From a virus: DNA of 23,737 nucleotides. Position numbers and translations under genes: made by a program. The stretch is from positions 1-23,737 of the IMG/VR virus record IMGVR_UViG_3300048838_000666. One strand, 5' to 3'. Below are positions 14,496 to 19,646 of the stretch, piece by piece (the first letter of the stretch is position 1; the number at the start of each line of letters is the position of its first letter). The notes under the pieces were generated by a model that saw nothing but the letters and a program-made list of their open reading frames with translations, was not told where the DNA came from and made no database searches.

Positions 14496-17023
14496 TGTCT
14501 CGGCTGATTCGACTTCTGGTCATCGCTCTCGCGCTAGTTGTGGGGACAGTCCCCGCTCAAGCAGCATTCGATCTTCCGAACGCGGTCCGAGAGAGTACCA
14601 ATTCCACCGGAACGGGTACAATCACTCTCGATGGTGCTGCATCGGGATATTTGTCTTTCGGTTCGCAGATCGCGAACAATGACAAAGTCTTCTACACGAT
14701 CTACAACAACACGGACATCGAGGTAGGTGAAGGTACCTTCCTGACTGGTCCGAATCGAATCCAGCGTGATGTGGTTCTGTACTCCACCAATGCAAATGCA
14801 TTGGTGAACTTCCCTGCAGGGTCCAAGACGGTCACATCTTCGCTGCCCGCAGAAGCAATCAAAAGCCTCACTGATCCGGCAGCAGCCGGTGGCTTCCTGG
14901 TACGAACCTCGAAGAACAACTACACCGCCCGAACCCTCTCTGTGGCAGGTGGTCTGGCGATCACAAATGCCAACGGCATTTCGGGCAACCCCCTGATCGA
15001 CGCCTCTTCACTTCCCTGTGGAGACAACACGACCACCTGTCGAGCCATCAGAGATTCGGATGCTGACGGCGACATTTGTGACGATCTCCAGATCGGAGTC
15101 AATTACCTCATCGATCCGGGTCGACCCGACTGGGGAGATTACCAAGACATTTACTTGGCCGCTCCTCCCATCGGCGAGTATGACTGTCGACAACGAGTCC
15201 GAATCTGCCTCAGTACGGGTTCCACCACGGGGTCGAATGAACCGTCCTGCGACGCTGCCAATCAAAATCTGATGCCCGTGATCCATGGCGTTGGTCCCTG
15301 GGATACCGTCAGAATCAAGGGCACCGCAGACGGAGTCAATGATCCGTACCCGTGGGAACCCAATGCCAGTGGCCCGGATGCGATGATTTGGATCGGTGAC
15401 CTCTGGAATGATGAAGCTGGGTACGTGAATGTCGATTGGCCGTGGATCTGGGCAGACGACGTCCATCACTCCATCCTTACCGCATACCCGTGGAATCGGG
15501 TAATGCCGATCTTCTGTGACGGCTGCAGCGGAGAAATTGGATGGAAGTTCAAGACACTTACCGACGGTATCAGTACCACCACCGCCTTCTATCCTACTTT
15601 CGTAGGAATCAATCTCAAAGTGAACATGGATGCCTACATCCAGCCGGGTTTCACCAGAGAAGTGCAGCCCTCCTTCGCCGCTGCATTTTTCCAAGGAAAC
15701 GGCATCAGCATCGCTGGAACGTCGAATGTTGGTGGCTTGGGGTTTGGTCGTGACCTTACTCCCGCTACTCTCTACTTTGGTAGTGCGTCAAATGCCAACA
15801 TCTACGGTGATACCAATGCCATCACTTTCGATGGAAGCTATGAGATTCTGGATGGGAGCCGAATCGAAGGTGGCCCGCTGGGGGCCGTAGAATCTCAAGA
15901 TGCACAAAGAGTCACTCTTCGAGGTAGACTCAGTTCTTCTGCCACGACCAAGCCGACGCTAAACTTTGCAACCAGCTCGGGAGCAAAGGGAACGGTCATC
16001 ACTTTCGACGGCGCAGACGTAGTAGGTTCTCAATCACTCAACATGCCTGTAAGGTTCACTGGCATTAACATCAATGCCAATTACCCCCACAGGATCATTG
16101 CAAATGGCACTTTCTGGAATACATACAACGGTGATAATGGTGGAATCTTCGGGTGTCTAAACATGACATTCACTCCATCTCCACGTTGTATCGTCAACCT
16201 GGCGGCATCTCGTCGAATGGGAAAGGGTCCGTGGTTTTCCGCACCCCCTACCAAGTTCGACGATACTCAGCAGATCTTCTTCGATCATCCTCAGAAGAAG
16301 TACTACACCATCCGAGTTCCGGATGGAACATCTGCATCTGGAAAGTGCATCCTGAATCCGCTGTCGGCTACACCCACCATCGGGACTTGTGATGCTACGG
16401 CATACATCGACTTCAAGGAGGATGTTTTCCTCACTGATTCGATGATCAAGCTGACCGAAGATTCAGTTGCAAGCTCTTCATGCATGATCGCACTTCAGGA
16501 ATCCGTAGATGTGGGGTCCACGACCTTTTCAAACTACGGGATGATGAATAGCACGTGCACGGCAGACAACACTCCCCATGCTTGCTGCTCGGGCTCTGGC
16601 GCGGGAAATTGCCGTAGCCATGGAGGCTGGAATGAGATTCACTACGGTGAAGCCGCCAGCTCCCTTCGATCAATTTCCACAGATCAACAGGGAGAGACAT
16701 ACAACGTCATCAACAACGGTCTCATCAAGGCTGGTGAGCGAATCCGATTTCAATTCCAGCAGCTGAAACGATGCAACGGCGGAACTCGAGCCAACTGGGA
16801 TTGCGAAGTCGATGGCGATTGCCCCAGCAGCACCTGTGGAAACATCACCAATAGCTGTGGCAATACCGCTGAAATGCAACTCACTTTCTCTACCATCCCG
16901 GTAGAGCCCGAACCTCAGTGTTACGACATGGTAGACAACGATTCTGATGGTCTTGTGGACTTCAACGAAAGCGGTCCGGGTTGGGATACCGGTTGCACGA
17001 GCCGCTTGGATAACAGCGAATAA
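14495..17023 (+). CDS. Fibre-like protein with Sec signal peptide and cysteine-rich body
   Basis: This 842-residue protein starts with an N-region (MSRLIR), a hydrophobic core and a SPase I site after AQA (residue 23), a textbook Sec signal. Immediately after comes a domain (about 24-125) that I recognise from phage tail-fibre N-termini: TNSTGTGTITLDGAASGYLSF, then YYTIYNN-like, VGEGTF, RDVVLYSTNANALVNFPAGS. The rest is beta-rich with a parallel-beta-helix feel (about 390-560) and 24 cysteines overall. Putative calcium-binding aspartate motifs lie at 187-197 (DSDADGDICDD) and near the end (DNDSDGLVDF). Cysteine clusters lie at 688-706 and 760-782. The ATG overlaps the previous stop (TAATG). 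Skipping the signal peptide would require the GTG at codon 16, which has no Shine-Dalgarno. Role is either receptor-binding fibre or a secreted fibre-derived protein. Confidence 0.72.
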   Translation: MSRLIRLLVIALALVVGTVPAQAAFDLPNAVRESTNSTGTGTITLDGAASGYLSFGSQIANNDKVFYTIYNNTDIEVGEGTFLTGPNRIQRDVVLYSTNANALVNFPAGSKTVTSSLPAEAIKSLTDPAAAGGFLVRTSKNNYTARTLSVAGGLAITNANGISGNPLIDASSLPCGDNTTTCRAIRDSDADGDICDDLQIGVNYLIDPGRPDWGDYQDIYLAAPPIGEYDCRQRVRICLSTGSTTGSNEPSCDAANQNLMPVIHGVGPWDTVRIKGTADGVNDPYPWEPNASGPDAMIWIGDLWNDEAGYVNVDWPWIWADDVHHSILTAYPWNRVMPIFCDGCSGEIGWKFKTLTDGISTTTAFYPTFVGINLKVNMDAYIQPGFTREVQPSFAAAFFQGNGISIAGTSNVGGLGFGRDLTPATLYFGSASNANIYGDTNAITFDGSYEILDGSRIEGGPLGAVESQDAQRVTLRGRLSSSATTKPTLNFATSSGAKGTVITFDGADVVGSQSLNMPVRFTGININANYPHRIIANGTFWNTYNGDNGGIFGCLNMTFTPSPRCIVNLAASRRMGKGPWFSAPPTKFDDTQQIFFDHPQKKYYTIRVPDGTSASGKCILNPLSATPTIGTCDATAYIDFKEDVFLTDSMIKLTEDSVASSSCMIALQESVDVGSTTFSNYGMMNSTCTADNTPHACCSGSGAGNCRSHGGWNEIHYGEAASSLRSISTDQQGETYNVINNGLIKAGERIRFQFQQLKRCNGGTRANWDCEVDGDCPSSTCGNITNSCGNTAEMQLTFSTIPVEPEPQCYDMVDNDSDGLVDFNESGPGWDTGCTSRLDNSE

Positions 17024-17316
17024 TGGAGATCAACCAAGAGTTCTTGAAGACGGCGATTGAGACAATAGGCGTCGCGTTCAGTGCTGCTGTGGGCGTAGGC
17101 GCTTATCTCAAGAAGCAGGTGAGGCACCTGATCCAGACGGAACTCCGTCCAATCTCGAAGCGCCTGCGGAAAGCCGAAAACAATCACCGCATCCTGGCAC
17201 AGGGACTATATCTAAACCTTCACAAGGATGGCTCTTGTGAAAGTGAGGATTGTCCCTGTTATTATCTCGAACGCCTTTCCAAAGAAGACAAAGAGGAAGA
17301 AGAAGAAGATGATTGA
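17023..17316 (+). CDS. Small membrane protein, holin candidate
   Basis: This 97-residue protein has one hydrophobic segment (about residues 9-28, TAIETIGVAFSAAVGVGAYL), then a basic amphipathic helix, a short cysteine patch (GSCESEDCPCYYLERL) and an acidic tail ending EEEEEDD. Its place, just before putative cell-wall genes, and its size make it a candidate for a single-span holin or a small membrane anchor. The segment is only moderately hydrophobic, so an alternative is a tail or membrane-associated accessory protein. The ATG overlaps the fibre stop (TAATG) and translation is probably coupled, as no good Shine-Dalgarno is visible. The gene overlaps the next start by eight bases. Confidence 0.5.
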   Translation: MEINQEFLKTAIETIGVAFSAAVGVGAYLKKQVRHLIQTELRPISKRLRKAENNHRILAQGLYLNLHKDGSCESEDCPCYYLERLSKEDKEEEEEDD

Positions 17317-18235
17317 ACCCAACTACGTCGACATGGTCAAAGTCCGAGACGAAGAGATCCGCGGCAAAAGCATGGAGCAGATTGCTCGCTGTGGAATGTT
17401 CGTTCACTCCGCCAATCCTGCAGTGGGTCACAAGCCCGATCGCTGGTCTCGTTTCATCTGGGATGAAATCGTCCGTGGTCAAATGATCGTGGCGATCAAC
17501 AATCGACTCCAAGCCAAAGAAGGCGTGAAGCCAGTCCAATGGCTCATCGGTGGGATTCGAGCCGACGTCATCGTCCATTATCCTTACATGGGCGATCTCA
17601 TCGGCTTCGACCCGAGCTGGGGCTTGGGGATGTCCGAAAAAGCCTGGGACCGAACTCGTCGCAACTGGGAAAACAATGGATGGAAGTGGGGATATGACTC
17701 GGGCATCGCTTCCCTGCAGGGGCAGCTCGAGACGGCCCTGGCGAAGCGAGGCCAGGTTCCGGTACCCTACGTCCAAGTCAACGCGACCAACAAGACGTTG
17801 AACATCTATTGCTATGCAATGGACGTTCGACAAGACCGTTGGTTCGATTGGCTGATCGAGAAGTCCCTCGAGATGGCAAAGGCTACTGGCTGTTGGACTT
17901 TCTGGCACGGCTTCAAATCTGGCCTGAACGAGAATACGCCTTCACAGATAGTGTTGCCCGATTCCGTTCACCAGCTCGAGTACCAGAACGGCGAGTCGAC
18001 CTGGCAGAGTCGGCCCCACAATCCTGGTGGAACGATGCTGACGTATGCTCACTATAAGCCTGGTGAGTTTCTGGATCGTTTCATGGTCCTGACCAAACGG
18101 ATGCGAATGGCGGGTATCGAGATTCTTCTCAACGAGGCTTATGCCAATCAGGGCCGCCGCTGGCTGTGGACAGAGAAATACCCCGAGGTCGCCGGACTTT
18201 TGATCGGCGAGATGCAAGTAAGGACCATGACATGA
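17309..18235 (+). CDS. Unrecognised Trp-rich protein, possibly a TIM-barrel glycosidase-like fold
   Basis: I do not recognise this 308-residue protein with certainty. It has 15 tryptophans and alternating strand-helix units: CGMFVHSANP, VQWLIGGIR, YVQVNATN, YAMDVRQDRWFDWLIEKSLEMAKATG, CWTFWHGFKSG and AGIEILLNEAYANQ. The D-x-R...W-x-D-W-L...A-x-A-x-G pattern followed by strands is reminiscent of glycosidase-like TIM barrels, with acidic candidates in LLNEAY and AMDVRQD. That is inference only. I start it at ATG 17309 after an AAGAGGAAG stretch, overlapping the previous stop by eight bases. An upstream in-frame ATG at 17228 would add 27 basic residues lying inside the previous gene, which is less likely. 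It sits between a holin candidate and an endolysin, so cell-wall or surface-glycan degradation is plausible, but it has no signal peptide. Confidence 0.55.
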   Translation: MIEPNYVDMVKVRDEEIRGKSMEQIARCGMFVHSANPAVGHKPDRWSRFIWDEIVRGQMIVAINNRLQAKEGVKPVQWLIGGIRADVIVHYPYMGDLIGFDPSWGLGMSEKAWDRTRRNWENNGWKWGYDSGIASLQGQLETALAKRGQVPVPYVQVNATNKTLNIYCYAMDVRQDRWFDWLIEKSLEMAKATGCWTFWHGFKSGLNENTPSQIVLPDSVHQLEYQNGESTWQSRPHNPGGTMLTYAHYKPGEFLDRFMVLTKRMRMAGIEILLNEAYANQGRRWLWTEKYPEVAGLLIGEMQVRTMT

Positions 18236-18705
18236 GTGCCGCCATACCCGTCTTCACACACGCCCCTTGGGCCGAGCTCATCTTCCAGGAATTCATCACT
18301 GGAATCAAAGAGTGGCCCGATCCGGGTGAAAATACCCGCATCCTGGAATATTTCCGAGTAGGGTGCCCTGGTTTCACGCCGCCCAACGGAGATGAAACCA
18401 ACTGGTGCGCTGCAGCGATTAGATGGGCACTCGTGACGTCCAGGGTGCCGAATGCGACTGGGAAACCTCTCGCGCGTTCGTTACTCACGGTCGGCGAAGC
18501 GATCCAAACACCCAAGCCCGGGTGCGTAGTGGTGATGTGGCGCGGGTCGAAGACAAGCTGGGAAGGACACGTAGGTATCTGGGTTGGTCAGTTCGGAGAA
18601 AACAACCTCGTACTCGGAGCAAATCAATCCAATGCAATCACTGTGGCACCTTTCCCGAAGAATCGCGTTCTGGGGTATCGTTGGTTCCGTGCTCCTTTCC
18701 ACTAG
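18232..18705 (+). CDS. Endolysin-like peptidase, TIGR02594 (NlpC/P60-CHAP type)
   Basis: This 157-residue protein fits the TIGR02594 phage family of NlpC/P60 or CHAP-like cell-wall peptidases. Catalytic candidates: Cys59 in ETNWCAAAIRWAL, His113 in WEGHVGIWVG, and Asn131 in LVLGANQSNAI, with the ending VLGYRWFRAP also typical. It begins with the usual HAPWAELIFQE helix. It probably cuts peptide bonds of peptidoglycan at the end of infection. There is no signal peptide or transmembrane span, so release would need a holin or the phage's other membrane proteins. The start is ATG 18232, overlapping the preceding stop in ATGA; an in-frame upstream ATG at 18166 lies inside the previous gene and is rejected. 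Its last 74 bases overlap a second gene in another frame. Confidence 0.85.
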   Translation: MSAAIPVFTHAPWAELIFQEFITGIKEWPDPGENTRILEYFRVGCPGFTPPNGDETNWCAAAIRWALVTSRVPNATGKPLARSLLTVGEAIQTPKPGCVVVMWRGSKTSWEGHVGIWVGQFGENNLVLGANQSNAITVAPFPKNRVLGYRWFRAPFH

Positions 18706-18874
18706 TGAATGCCACCAGCTAGCTACTCCCAGCTGTCCTCCGATGCATGCAGTCTACGATGAAGACGGTTGTCCCGACGGTGCATGGGGCTTCGAGACAT
18801 ACTACGGATGGCCGTTCGAAGATCGTTCACAGATCTGCGCGGAGATCAATAGACTGTGTGCCCCTCTGGAGTAG
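18632..18874 (+). CDS. Small exported cysteine-containing protein, overlapping lysin gene
   Basis: This 80-residue protein starts inside the endolysin gene in the +1 frame and runs 169 bases past it. It begins MQSLWHLSRR, then a hydrophobic core (about residues 11-23), then STSEC, which fits a SPase I cleavage. The -1 residue is Glu, so it is not a proper lipobox. The mature part has five cysteines and an acidic patch (VYDEDGCPDG), with no predicted long helix as in inner-membrane spanins. Overlap with a lysin recalls lambda Rz/Rz1, so an outer-membrane or periplasmic lysis accessory is possible but unproven. A GGAG lies 12 bases before the ATG, slightly far. Without this gene, 150 bases would be empty in an otherwise packed operon, which supports it. 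Confidence 0.5.
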   Translation: MQSLWHLSRRIAFWGIVGSVLLSTSECHQLATPSCPPMHAVYDEDGCPDGAWGFETYYGWPFEDRSQICAEINRLCAPLE

Positions 18875-19311
18875 ATGAAGACCTCGATCAAGACTTCGAA
18901 CTAGAAAAGCTCGAGGCTGCAAGAGAAGGTAGGCCCCCTAGGAAAAAGAAGTGGCTTGCAATCGACAAACTCAGGAAAGAGTTAGGTCGAGGCGAGATGG
19001 GACCCAGAAACATAGTCCCTATCTTACCCGAAGAATTGGCTCAGGCCCCAGAACCCGAAACGGATCAATGGAGTCGTAACCTAGCAGATAGGGCCACAAG
19101 AATGGCTCAATCGCTGCCACAGGAACAACGCCACGTCATAGTCATGGCCCTCCGATGCCTTTCTCATAGAACGGCAGAGGGTAAGGTTCGAGTGTGGTTG
19201 GAATTAAATCCCAACCGACGAGCAACTCACAAAGTCATTGCTGAAGAGGTAGGACTAAGTCGATTCAGCGTGACTCGAGCACTAGTAAAACTCAGGAGAA
19301 AGACCAAGTGA
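18856..19311 (+). CDS. Sigma-region-4-like helix-turn-helix regulator
   Basis: This 151-residue basic protein has a C-terminal domain (about residues 87-149) patterned like sigma-70 region 4: SLPQEQRHVIVMALRCL, then a short turn and a second helix pair ATHKVIAEEVGLSRFSVTRALVKLRRK (about 123-148), a canonical helix-turn-helix with GLS-x-x-x-V. The N-terminal half is charged and looks disordered or helical. A role as phage transcription regulator, perhaps for late or delayed genes, is likely; no full sigma core-binding region 2 is visible. The start is a GTG at 18856, the only early start in frame, with GGAG 12 bases upstream. It overlaps the previous gene by 19 bases and the next by four (GTGA). 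Confidence 0.62.
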   Translation: MCPSGVDEDLDQDFELEKLEAAREGRPPRKKKWLAIDKLRKELGRGEMGPRNIVPILPEELAQAPEPETDQWSRNLADRATRMAQSLPQEQRHVIVMALRCLSHRTAEGKVRVWLELNPNRRATHKVIAEEVGLSRFSVTRALVKLRRKTK

Positions 19312-19646
19312 AAAGATTCACCGTAGTTTTACTCCTCAGTCTGGCCTGTGCTCCGACTTGGCTCCACAGTGAAGAATCAGCCCAGTATGTCTTGGGATCA
19401 GCAGACCAGGGTTGTACCGCTTCGCCTGACATAGCGGGCGGTATCCCTTGTCTGAATCATGATTCTGCGTATTGGGTAGGTGGAACCGAAGAGGATCGAC
19501 TCATAGCGGATGCCCAGCTATTCTATGAGTTGATTCTCTACGGGGTCCCCGAGGACGTTGCTTCGATGTATTACCGCGTAGTCCGAGAGCTTGGATGGAC
19601 TAGGTGGCCCTACAAGAAGCAACGAACTCGGGGACCTCCGAGATAA
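19308..19646 (+). CDS. Secreted protein with phospholipase-A2-like CxxHD motif
   Basis: This 112-residue protein starts MKRF with a hydrophobic core (residues 5-13) and plausible cleavage after about residue 21 (LHS), so it should be exported. The mature part carries ADQGCTASPDIAGGIPCLNHDSAYWVGGTEEDR. The CLNHD at 48-52 with Tyr55 and Gly58-Gly59 recalls the C-x-x-H-D-x-x-Y active site of phospholipase A2 and related bacterial secreted proteins with HD-x-A-Y-W-x-GG-T. The second cysteine (Cys36) could form a disulfide. If active it would hydrolyse membrane phospholipids during lysis. The classic calcium loop is not obvious and length is short, so a non-catalytic relative is possible. GTG start overlaps the HTH gene stop. 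It is the last late gene; its stop directly abuts the opposing gene. Confidence 0.6.
   Translation: MKRFTVVLLLSLACAPTWLHSEESAQYVLGSADQGCTASPDIAGGIPCLNHDSAYWVGGTEEDRLIADAQLFYELILYGVPEDVASMYYRVVRELGWTRWPYKKQRTRGPPR

What the first reader, a model, noticed from the sequence alone, without database searches (positions are those of the whole stretch)
19308..19646. Phage-encoded secreted protein with a phospholipase-A2-like active site
Seen: signal-peptide-like start and CLNHDSAYWVGGT, matching the C-x-x-H-D-x-x-Y core of PLA2-type enzymes, at the end of the lysis/late operon. Known: the His-Asp pair is the catalytic dyad in PLA2; prophage-encoded PLA2 exists in streptococci. Inference: a lipase working with holin and endolysin to break host membranes, or acting on the envelope during release, is rarely described for such phages.
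Basis: partly seen in the sequence, partly recalled or inferred. Interest (0 to 1): 0.7.

Follow-up and report, generated by a model that had tools for sequence, protein, structure and literature searches.

The report
Exported phage phospholipase-A2-like enzyme
The last gene of this phage's tail-and-lysis operon encodes a small, probably exported protein of the phospholipase A2 type, one of a widespread but mostly unannotated phage family, which may help to break open the host's membranes, although no experiment has shown that role.

Summary
ORF 19308-19646 (+), 112 aa, starts GTG, has an AGGAG site 9 nt upstream and overlaps the stop of the preceding gene. It has a signal-peptide-like N-terminus and C-x-x-H-D-x-x-Y. 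It matches no curated Pfam family, but matches phrog_6098 ('unknown function', E=8e-6). At least 120 viral contig stretches carry the extended motif. A profile of 80 members finds bacterial and fungal group XIV PLA2 structures (E 1e-6 to 7e-5), and individual members hit PF09056 and DUF1353. A DUF1353 protein, TtaP, has demonstrated PLA2 activity. The AlphaFold model's best three structural matches are all such PLA2s. The PLA2 reading is therefore supported, with one correction: the dyad is His51 with Asp68, and Asp52 is the calcium ligand. The calcium loop carries a one-residue insertion almost unique among relatives, so activity is likely but not certain. A lysis role fits the window's gene order and a parallel cassette in one relative (L108). 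Across the family, however, small membrane-protein neighbours are not enriched (23% against 19%), most members lack export signals, and some sit near terminase, tail or diversity-generating retroelement genes. New member of a known kind; whether it replaces a spanin is open.

The parts
19308..19646 (+). ORF for the PLA2-like protein, 112 aa
   Evidence: codon-usage score best in own frame
19294..19298 (+). AGGAG ribosome-binding site, 9 nt before the GTG start; start overlaps the upstream stop codon (GTGA)
   Evidence: sequence
19308..19370 (+). signal-peptide-like N-terminus MKRFTVVLLLSLACAPTWLHS (residues 1-21); cleavage site inferred
   Evidence: hydropathy; no canonical lipobox
19404..19430 (+). 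putative calcium-loop segment D33-Q34-G35-C36-T-A-S-P-D41, with one extra residue (Q34) compared with the (D/N)-G-C of relatives
   Evidence: alignment A1; column 34 is a gap in 78 of 79 relatives
19449..19511 (+). catalytic core C48..H51-D52..Y55..G58-G59....R64..A67-D68; H51 and D68 the presumed dyad, D52 the presumed Ca ligand
   Evidence: residue roles by homology with TtaP/SvPLA2 (PMC11525133)
19569..19595 (+). third core helix signature Y88-Y89..V92-R93..G96
   Evidence: 90% or more conserved for V92, R93, G96; recognises the protein without the motif; helix 82-99 in the model
18232..18705 (+). endolysin candidate, TIGR02594 family, CHAP-like
   Evidence: TIGR02594 E=1.1e-20 above cut-off, phrog_1259 E=2.5e-20 (run on the longer ORF 18166-18705)
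18632..18874 (+). 80-aa exported-looking Cys-rich ORF overlapping the end of the endolysin gene; no family
   Evidence: (run on the longer ORF 18584-18874)
18856..19311 (+). sigma-region-4/HTH-like ORF directly upstream, translationally coupled to the PLA2-like gene
   Evidence: weak HTH and sigma matches
17023..17316 (+). 97-aa protein with one N-terminal hydrophobic segment then an amphipathic/coil region; holin- or i-spanin-like layout, no family

Best explanation
A late-expressed, Sec-exported phospholipase of the bacterial/fungal group XIV - DUF1353 PLA2 superfamily. Mature part of about 91 residues: a Ca-binding loop around G35-C36 followed by three helices. His51, polarised by Asp68, would activate a water that attacks the sn-2 ester of envelope phospholipids, while Ca2+ held by Asp52 and the loop stabilises the transition state. 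Made as the last gene of the tail/lysis operon, it would collect in the periplasm and weaken host membranes, most plausibly the outer membrane, so that after holin and endolysin action the envelope gives way. Shown here: the ORF, family relationship and conserved residues. Inferred: export, enzymatic activity, calcium dependence, role in lysis. My separate estimates: superfamily membership 0.9, active PLA2 0.75, exported 0.8, lysis role 0.4.
For: phrog_6098 match E=8e-6. Alignment of 80 viral relatives; G35, C36, V92, R93, G96 conserved in 90% or more although only C48-D68 was used to recruit them. Profile hits to 4aup, 1faz, 7ygk, 8k1w, all PLA2, E 1e-6 to 7e-5, and 4.5e-7 to 1.7e-6 with the second alignment. 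24 members hit PF09056 (best 4.3e-9), 25 hit DUF1353 (best 1.5e-5). Two AlphaFold models with confident core helices; best three VIA matches are PLA2s at Z 6.6-6.8 and 5.9-6.3, next unrelated rows 4.1 and 3.7. DUF1353 TtaP is a biochemically proven PLA2, abolished by D85A, the equivalent of D68 (PMC11525133). Gene order endolysin - 80 aa - HTH - PLA2 in the window. One of the closest relatives, L108, has TIGR02594-type endolysin - 72-aa TM/coil protein - PLA2 - holin-like protein. L079 has a PLA2 with an N-terminal hydrophobic segment next to an endolysin.
Against: The window protein alone passes no curated Pfam or NCBIfam threshold. Its calcium loop is aberrant (Q34 insertion) and the N-terminal part does not score above shuffles. 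Foldseek E-values are not significant and Z 6-7 is modest for helical folds. Across 79 loci, small co-directional membrane-protein neighbours are not enriched: 18/79 against 19.2% control, p=0.25. Most relatives show no export signal.
Confidence: 0.55

Rival explanations
1. A true exported PLA2, but not a lysis gene: an accessory cargo gene at the end of the late operon that alters the host envelope, or is released to act on other cells, as proposed for secreted PLA2 genes of streptococcal and staphylococcal phages.
For: Family neighbours vary (reverse transcriptase, tail fibre, terminase, methyltransferase). Staphylococcus sciuri phage phi575 carries a signal-peptide pla2 downstream of its lytic module, interpreted as a conversion gene (PMC5390265). 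Operon ends are common sites for cargo genes (general knowledge).
Against: No integrase or lysogeny gene was recognised in the 23.7 kb window, though it is a fragment and not every ORF was searched; the gene is translationally coupled to the late operon.
Confidence: 0.3
2. A degenerate PLA2 fold with no catalysis: the calcium-loop insertion abolishes activity and the protein only binds membranes or partners.
For: Q34 insertion almost unique among 79 relatives; N-terminal segment not recognised by the family profile.
Against: Every core residue including H51, D52, Y55, R64 and D68 is kept, which is unexpected in a decayed enzyme; D33 could still supply a ligand.
Confidence: 0.15
3. A virion-associated PLA2 used in entry, comparable to the parvovirus VP1 PLA2 domain, rather than in exit.
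For: In Vibrio phage 1.097.O the PLA2-domain protein lies between terminase and a head-completion gene; several relatives lie beside tail genes.
Against: The window protein carries a signal-peptide-like start, which would send it out of the cytoplasm where virions assemble, and it lies beyond the endolysin.
Confidence: 0.08
4. Chance motif in an unrelated small protein.
For: No significant Pfam or PDB match with the single sequence.
Against: phrog_6098 match; motif-independent C-terminal match ranks first against 5,000 shuffles; PLA2 structures best in both model comparisons.
Confidence: 0.03

Closest known systems
phrog_6098 (PHROGs family, function unknown)
   Same: window protein matches at E=8e-6; 77 of 80 relatives match
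   Different: the family carries no functional name; the window member has a signal-peptide-like start that most members lack
DUF1353 (PF07087), TtaP of Salmonella Typhi
   Same: 25 of 80 relatives match weakly; same His / adjacent Asp / distal Asp arrangement, spacing from His to second Asp 17 here against 15; TtaP has PLA2 activity and has prophage relatives (PMC11525133)
   Different: window protein itself gives no DUF1353 hit; TtaP has no signal sequence and lacks the disulfide cysteines of SvPLA2, whereas C36 and C48 are present here
Group XIV secreted PLA2 (PF09056; S. violaceoruber 1FAZ, T. borchii 4AUP, Sciscionella 7YGK, Saccharothrix 8K1W)
   Same: secreted, three-helix core, C-x-x-H-D-x-x-Y, distal Asp on the next helix, terminal Y-Y..V-R..G helix; profile E down to 4.5e-7
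   Different: no PF09056 hit for the window protein; shorter; two core cysteines (C36, C48) rather than four; GG turn instead of the longer N-Y-K segment; insertion in the calcium loop
gp09 'phospholipase A2 domain protein' of Vibrio phage 1.097.O
   Same: phage-borne relative of the family, recognised by InterPro as PLA2
   Different: located next to terminase/head genes, not lysis
phi575 Pla2 and streptococcal phage PLA2
   Same: signal-peptide PLA2 downstream of phage lytic genes in phi575 (PMC5390265)
   Different: Gram-positive phages, interpreted as virulence conversion; sequences not compared here
Spanins and disruptins (Gram-negative phage outer-membrane disruptors)
   Same: possible functional niche; 13% of such phages lack an identifiable spanin (PMC12819732)
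   Different: spanins fuse membranes and disruptins are peptides; this would be an enzyme

Membership tests
Group XIV sPLA2 (PF09056) | scores above the Pfam model's cut-off | tested here: not met
   no PF09056 hit for the window protein up to E=1; 24 relatives hit at E<=0.1, best 4.3e-9
Group XIV sPLA2 (PF09056) | C-x-x-H-D-x-x-Y with a second Asp on the following helix | tested here: met
   C48, H51, D52, Y55, D68; D68 aligns with the catalytic Asp in profile alignments to PLA2 structures
Group XIV sPLA2 (PF09056) | three-helix PLA2 core fold | tested here: met
   helices 46-57, 61-77, 82-99; top VIA matches 4aup, 8k1w, 7ygk, Z 6.6-6.8, above unrelated rows at 4.1; Z is modest
Group XIV sPLA2 (PF09056) | calcium-binding loop with (D/N)-x-C | tested here: inconclusive
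   D33-Q34-G35-C36 has an inserted residue
Group XIV sPLA2 (PF09056) | two disulfides (four cysteines) in the mature enzyme | tested here: not met
   mature part has only C36 and C48
Group XIV sPLA2 (PF09056) | sn-2 phospholipid hydrolysis | not testable with these tools
   needs an assay
DUF1353 (PF07087) | scores above the Pfam model's cut-off | tested here: not met
   no hit; 25 relatives hit at E<=0.1, best 1.5e-5
phrog_6098 | profile match | tested here: met
   E=8.1e-6, residues 47-105
Phage outer-membrane lysis protein (spanin-like role) | spanin sequence family or lipobox/TM architecture | tested here: not met
   no lipobox, no spanin family hit
Phage outer-membrane lysis protein (spanin-like role) | required for outer-membrane breach during lysis | not testable with these tools
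   needs deletion and complementation
Phage outer-membrane lysis protein (spanin-like role) | consistent linkage to lysis genes across the family | tested here: not met
   18/79 loci have a small co-directional membrane-protein neighbour against 19.2% control, p=0.25; a few clear cassettes such as L108

The most novel reading that the evidence does not exclude
Exported phage PLA2s form an enzymatic class of outer-membrane disruptor that replaces or assists spanins in lysis of Gram-negative hosts; the window, L108 and L079 would be examples, and the muramidase-plus-PLA2 pair of the typhoid islet (TtsA/TtaP) a possible relic of such a cassette.
Probability: 0.25. Interest if true: 0.65.

Novelty: new member of a known kind. 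Interest (0 to 1): 0.38.

Why it matters
About 13% of tailed phages of Gram-negative bacteria have no identifiable spanin, and what they use instead is described as an open question (PMC12819732). A small exported phospholipase behind the endolysin is a concrete, testable candidate. More generally, a large phage family listed as 'unknown function' can be given a likely enzymatic activity.

Tried and rejected
Single-sequence searches (Pfam, NCBIfam, PDB, tblastn of 50,697 phage records, peptide-pattern scan of viral contigs) found nothing beyond phrog_6098. Searching whole contigs for four endolysin families gave few matches (2, 2, 1 and 2 of 50), too few for a linkage statistic. Small membrane-protein neighbour enrichment: negative. 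No viral relatives of the window's endolysin or of its 308-aa neighbour were found; one contig with an identical head protein (L129) covers the head genes but, by its length, ends before the PLA2 gene. No paper found in the held library describes a PLA2 as a phage lysis protein in the four searches made. Foldseek alone gave no significant E-value. One lysis review was read for lipases, without result.

Full report
Observation. The ORF at 19308-19646 (+) exists exactly as described. It starts GTG, has AGGAG 9 nt upstream, and overlaps the stop of the preceding HTH-like ORF as GTGA. Its own frame has the best codon-usage score of six. CxxHDxxY occurs in 40 of 200,000 shuffles of the protein; the extended pattern C..HD..Y..GG....R..AD occurs in none. 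The extended pattern was chosen after seeing the sequence, so I rely more on independent evidence: the phrog_6098 profile match, E=8e-6, and a test in which the motif columns were removed and the C-terminal part alone ranked first among 5,000 shuffles, E=9.9e-5.

Family. Alone, the protein reaches no Pfam, NCBIfam or PDB family. Eighty sequences, the window's and 79 non-redundant relatives, were aligned. The residues C48, H51, D52, Y55, G58, G59, R64, A67 and D68 are invariant by construction of the search, but G35, C36, V92, R93 and G96 are conserved in 90% or more without having been asked for. 24 members hit Prokaryotic phospholipase A2 PF09056 (best E 4.3e-9) and 25 hit DUF1353 (best 1.5e-5). 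The profile finds PLA2 structures from Tuber, Streptomyces, Sciscionella and Saccharothrix at E 1e-6 to 7e-5; a second, tighter alignment gives 4.5e-7 to 1.7e-6.

Structure. Two AlphaFold models show three confident helices (46-57, 61-77, 82-99 in the first). Foldseek E-values are weak, but in both second looks the three best matches are the group XIV PLA2s (Z 6.6-6.8 and 5.9-6.3), clearly above the next rows at 4.1 and 3.7. These Z values are modest for a helical fold, so they support rather than prove.

Active site. In SvPLA2, TbSP1 and TtaP the dyad is the motif His with an Asp on the next helix (H70 and D85 in TtaP), and the Asp after the His is also important for catalysis; TtaP D85A is inactive (PMC11525133). 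The equivalents here are H51, D68 and D52. The calcium loop reads D33-Q34-G35-C36, whereas relatives read (D/N)-G-C; position 34 is a gap in 78 of 79. This leaves activity probable but open.

Export. The N-terminus has a basic start, a hydrophobic stretch and a polar c-region; there is no canonical lipobox. Among the relatives examined by hydropathy only a handful have a comparable segment: L006, L011 (lipoprotein-like), L047 and L079. Most members therefore look cytoplasmic and would need release through holin lesions if they act in lysis.

Context. In the window the order is tail-region protein, 97-aa TM/coil protein, 308-aa protein, TIGR02594 endolysin, 80-aa exported-looking Cys-rich ORF, HTH-like ORF, PLA2-like gene, then convergent helicase, nuclease and Sak4-like genes. 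No lipobox-bearing o-spanin candidate was found in 16.9-19.9 kb with a simple scan. In L108, one of the closest relatives, a TIGR02594-type endolysin is followed by a 72-aa TM/coil protein, the PLA2 and a holin-like protein. L079 has an endolysin beside its PLA2 gene. But a systematic count found no enrichment of small membrane-protein neighbours (18/79 against 19.2%, p=0.25), with crude gene calls. Other neighbours include reverse transcriptase, tail fibre, terminase and methyltransferase families, and Vibrio phage 1.097.O has its PLA2-domain gene next to the terminase. The lysis role is therefore a hypothesis for this member, not a family property.

The virus. The window is a viral contig, probably incomplete. 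Its major head protein is nearest to Tunturiibacter phage Tunturi_4 (42% identity), then Vibrio and enterobacterial phages, so a Gram-negative host is likely but not established.

Verdict. A new member of a known kind: a probably exported PLA2-superfamily protein of a phage. The most interesting point is that it offers a candidate enzyme for outer-membrane breach in phages without spanins, which PMC12819732 names as an open question. In the same vein, the TtaP authors considered that TtaP might supply the outer-membrane perturbation that the muramidase TtsA cannot (PMC11525133).

Noticed in passing
L037:2299-5158 (also L008, L020, L024, L026, L053): A subfamily of the PLA2-like genes lies just downstream of a diversity-generating retroelement: in L037 a 114-nt repeat pair whose 13 mismatches are all at adenines of one copy, then a reverse transcriptase, a DUF4376-like ORF, the PLA2-like gene and a prophage-tail protein. 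Adenine-biased repeats were found in five other loci; reverse transcriptase phrog_1423 matches 10 of 112 upstream neighbours.
   Followed up: partly
L108:3482-4711: Compact apparent lysis cassette: TIGR02594-type endolysin, 72-aa TM/coil protein, PLA2-like, holin-like protein.
   Followed up: partly
window 18632-18874: 80-aa exported-looking, cysteine-rich ORF overlapping the 3' end of the endolysin gene in another frame; no family match.
   Followed up: partly
window 18856-19311: Sigma-region-4/HTH-like protein encoded between the endolysin and the PLA2-like gene; possibly a late regulator.
   Followed up: no
L129 (IMGVR_UViG_3300048839_000488): Contig with an identical major head protein, 100% over 321 aa, extending about 1.9 kb beyond the left end of the window; by its length it ends before the PLA2-like gene.
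   Followed up: no
phrog_1158: This PHROG, named tail assembly chaperone, matches 51 of 80 PLA2-like sequences (best E 5.6e-12); the name may be misleading for these members.
   Followed up: no
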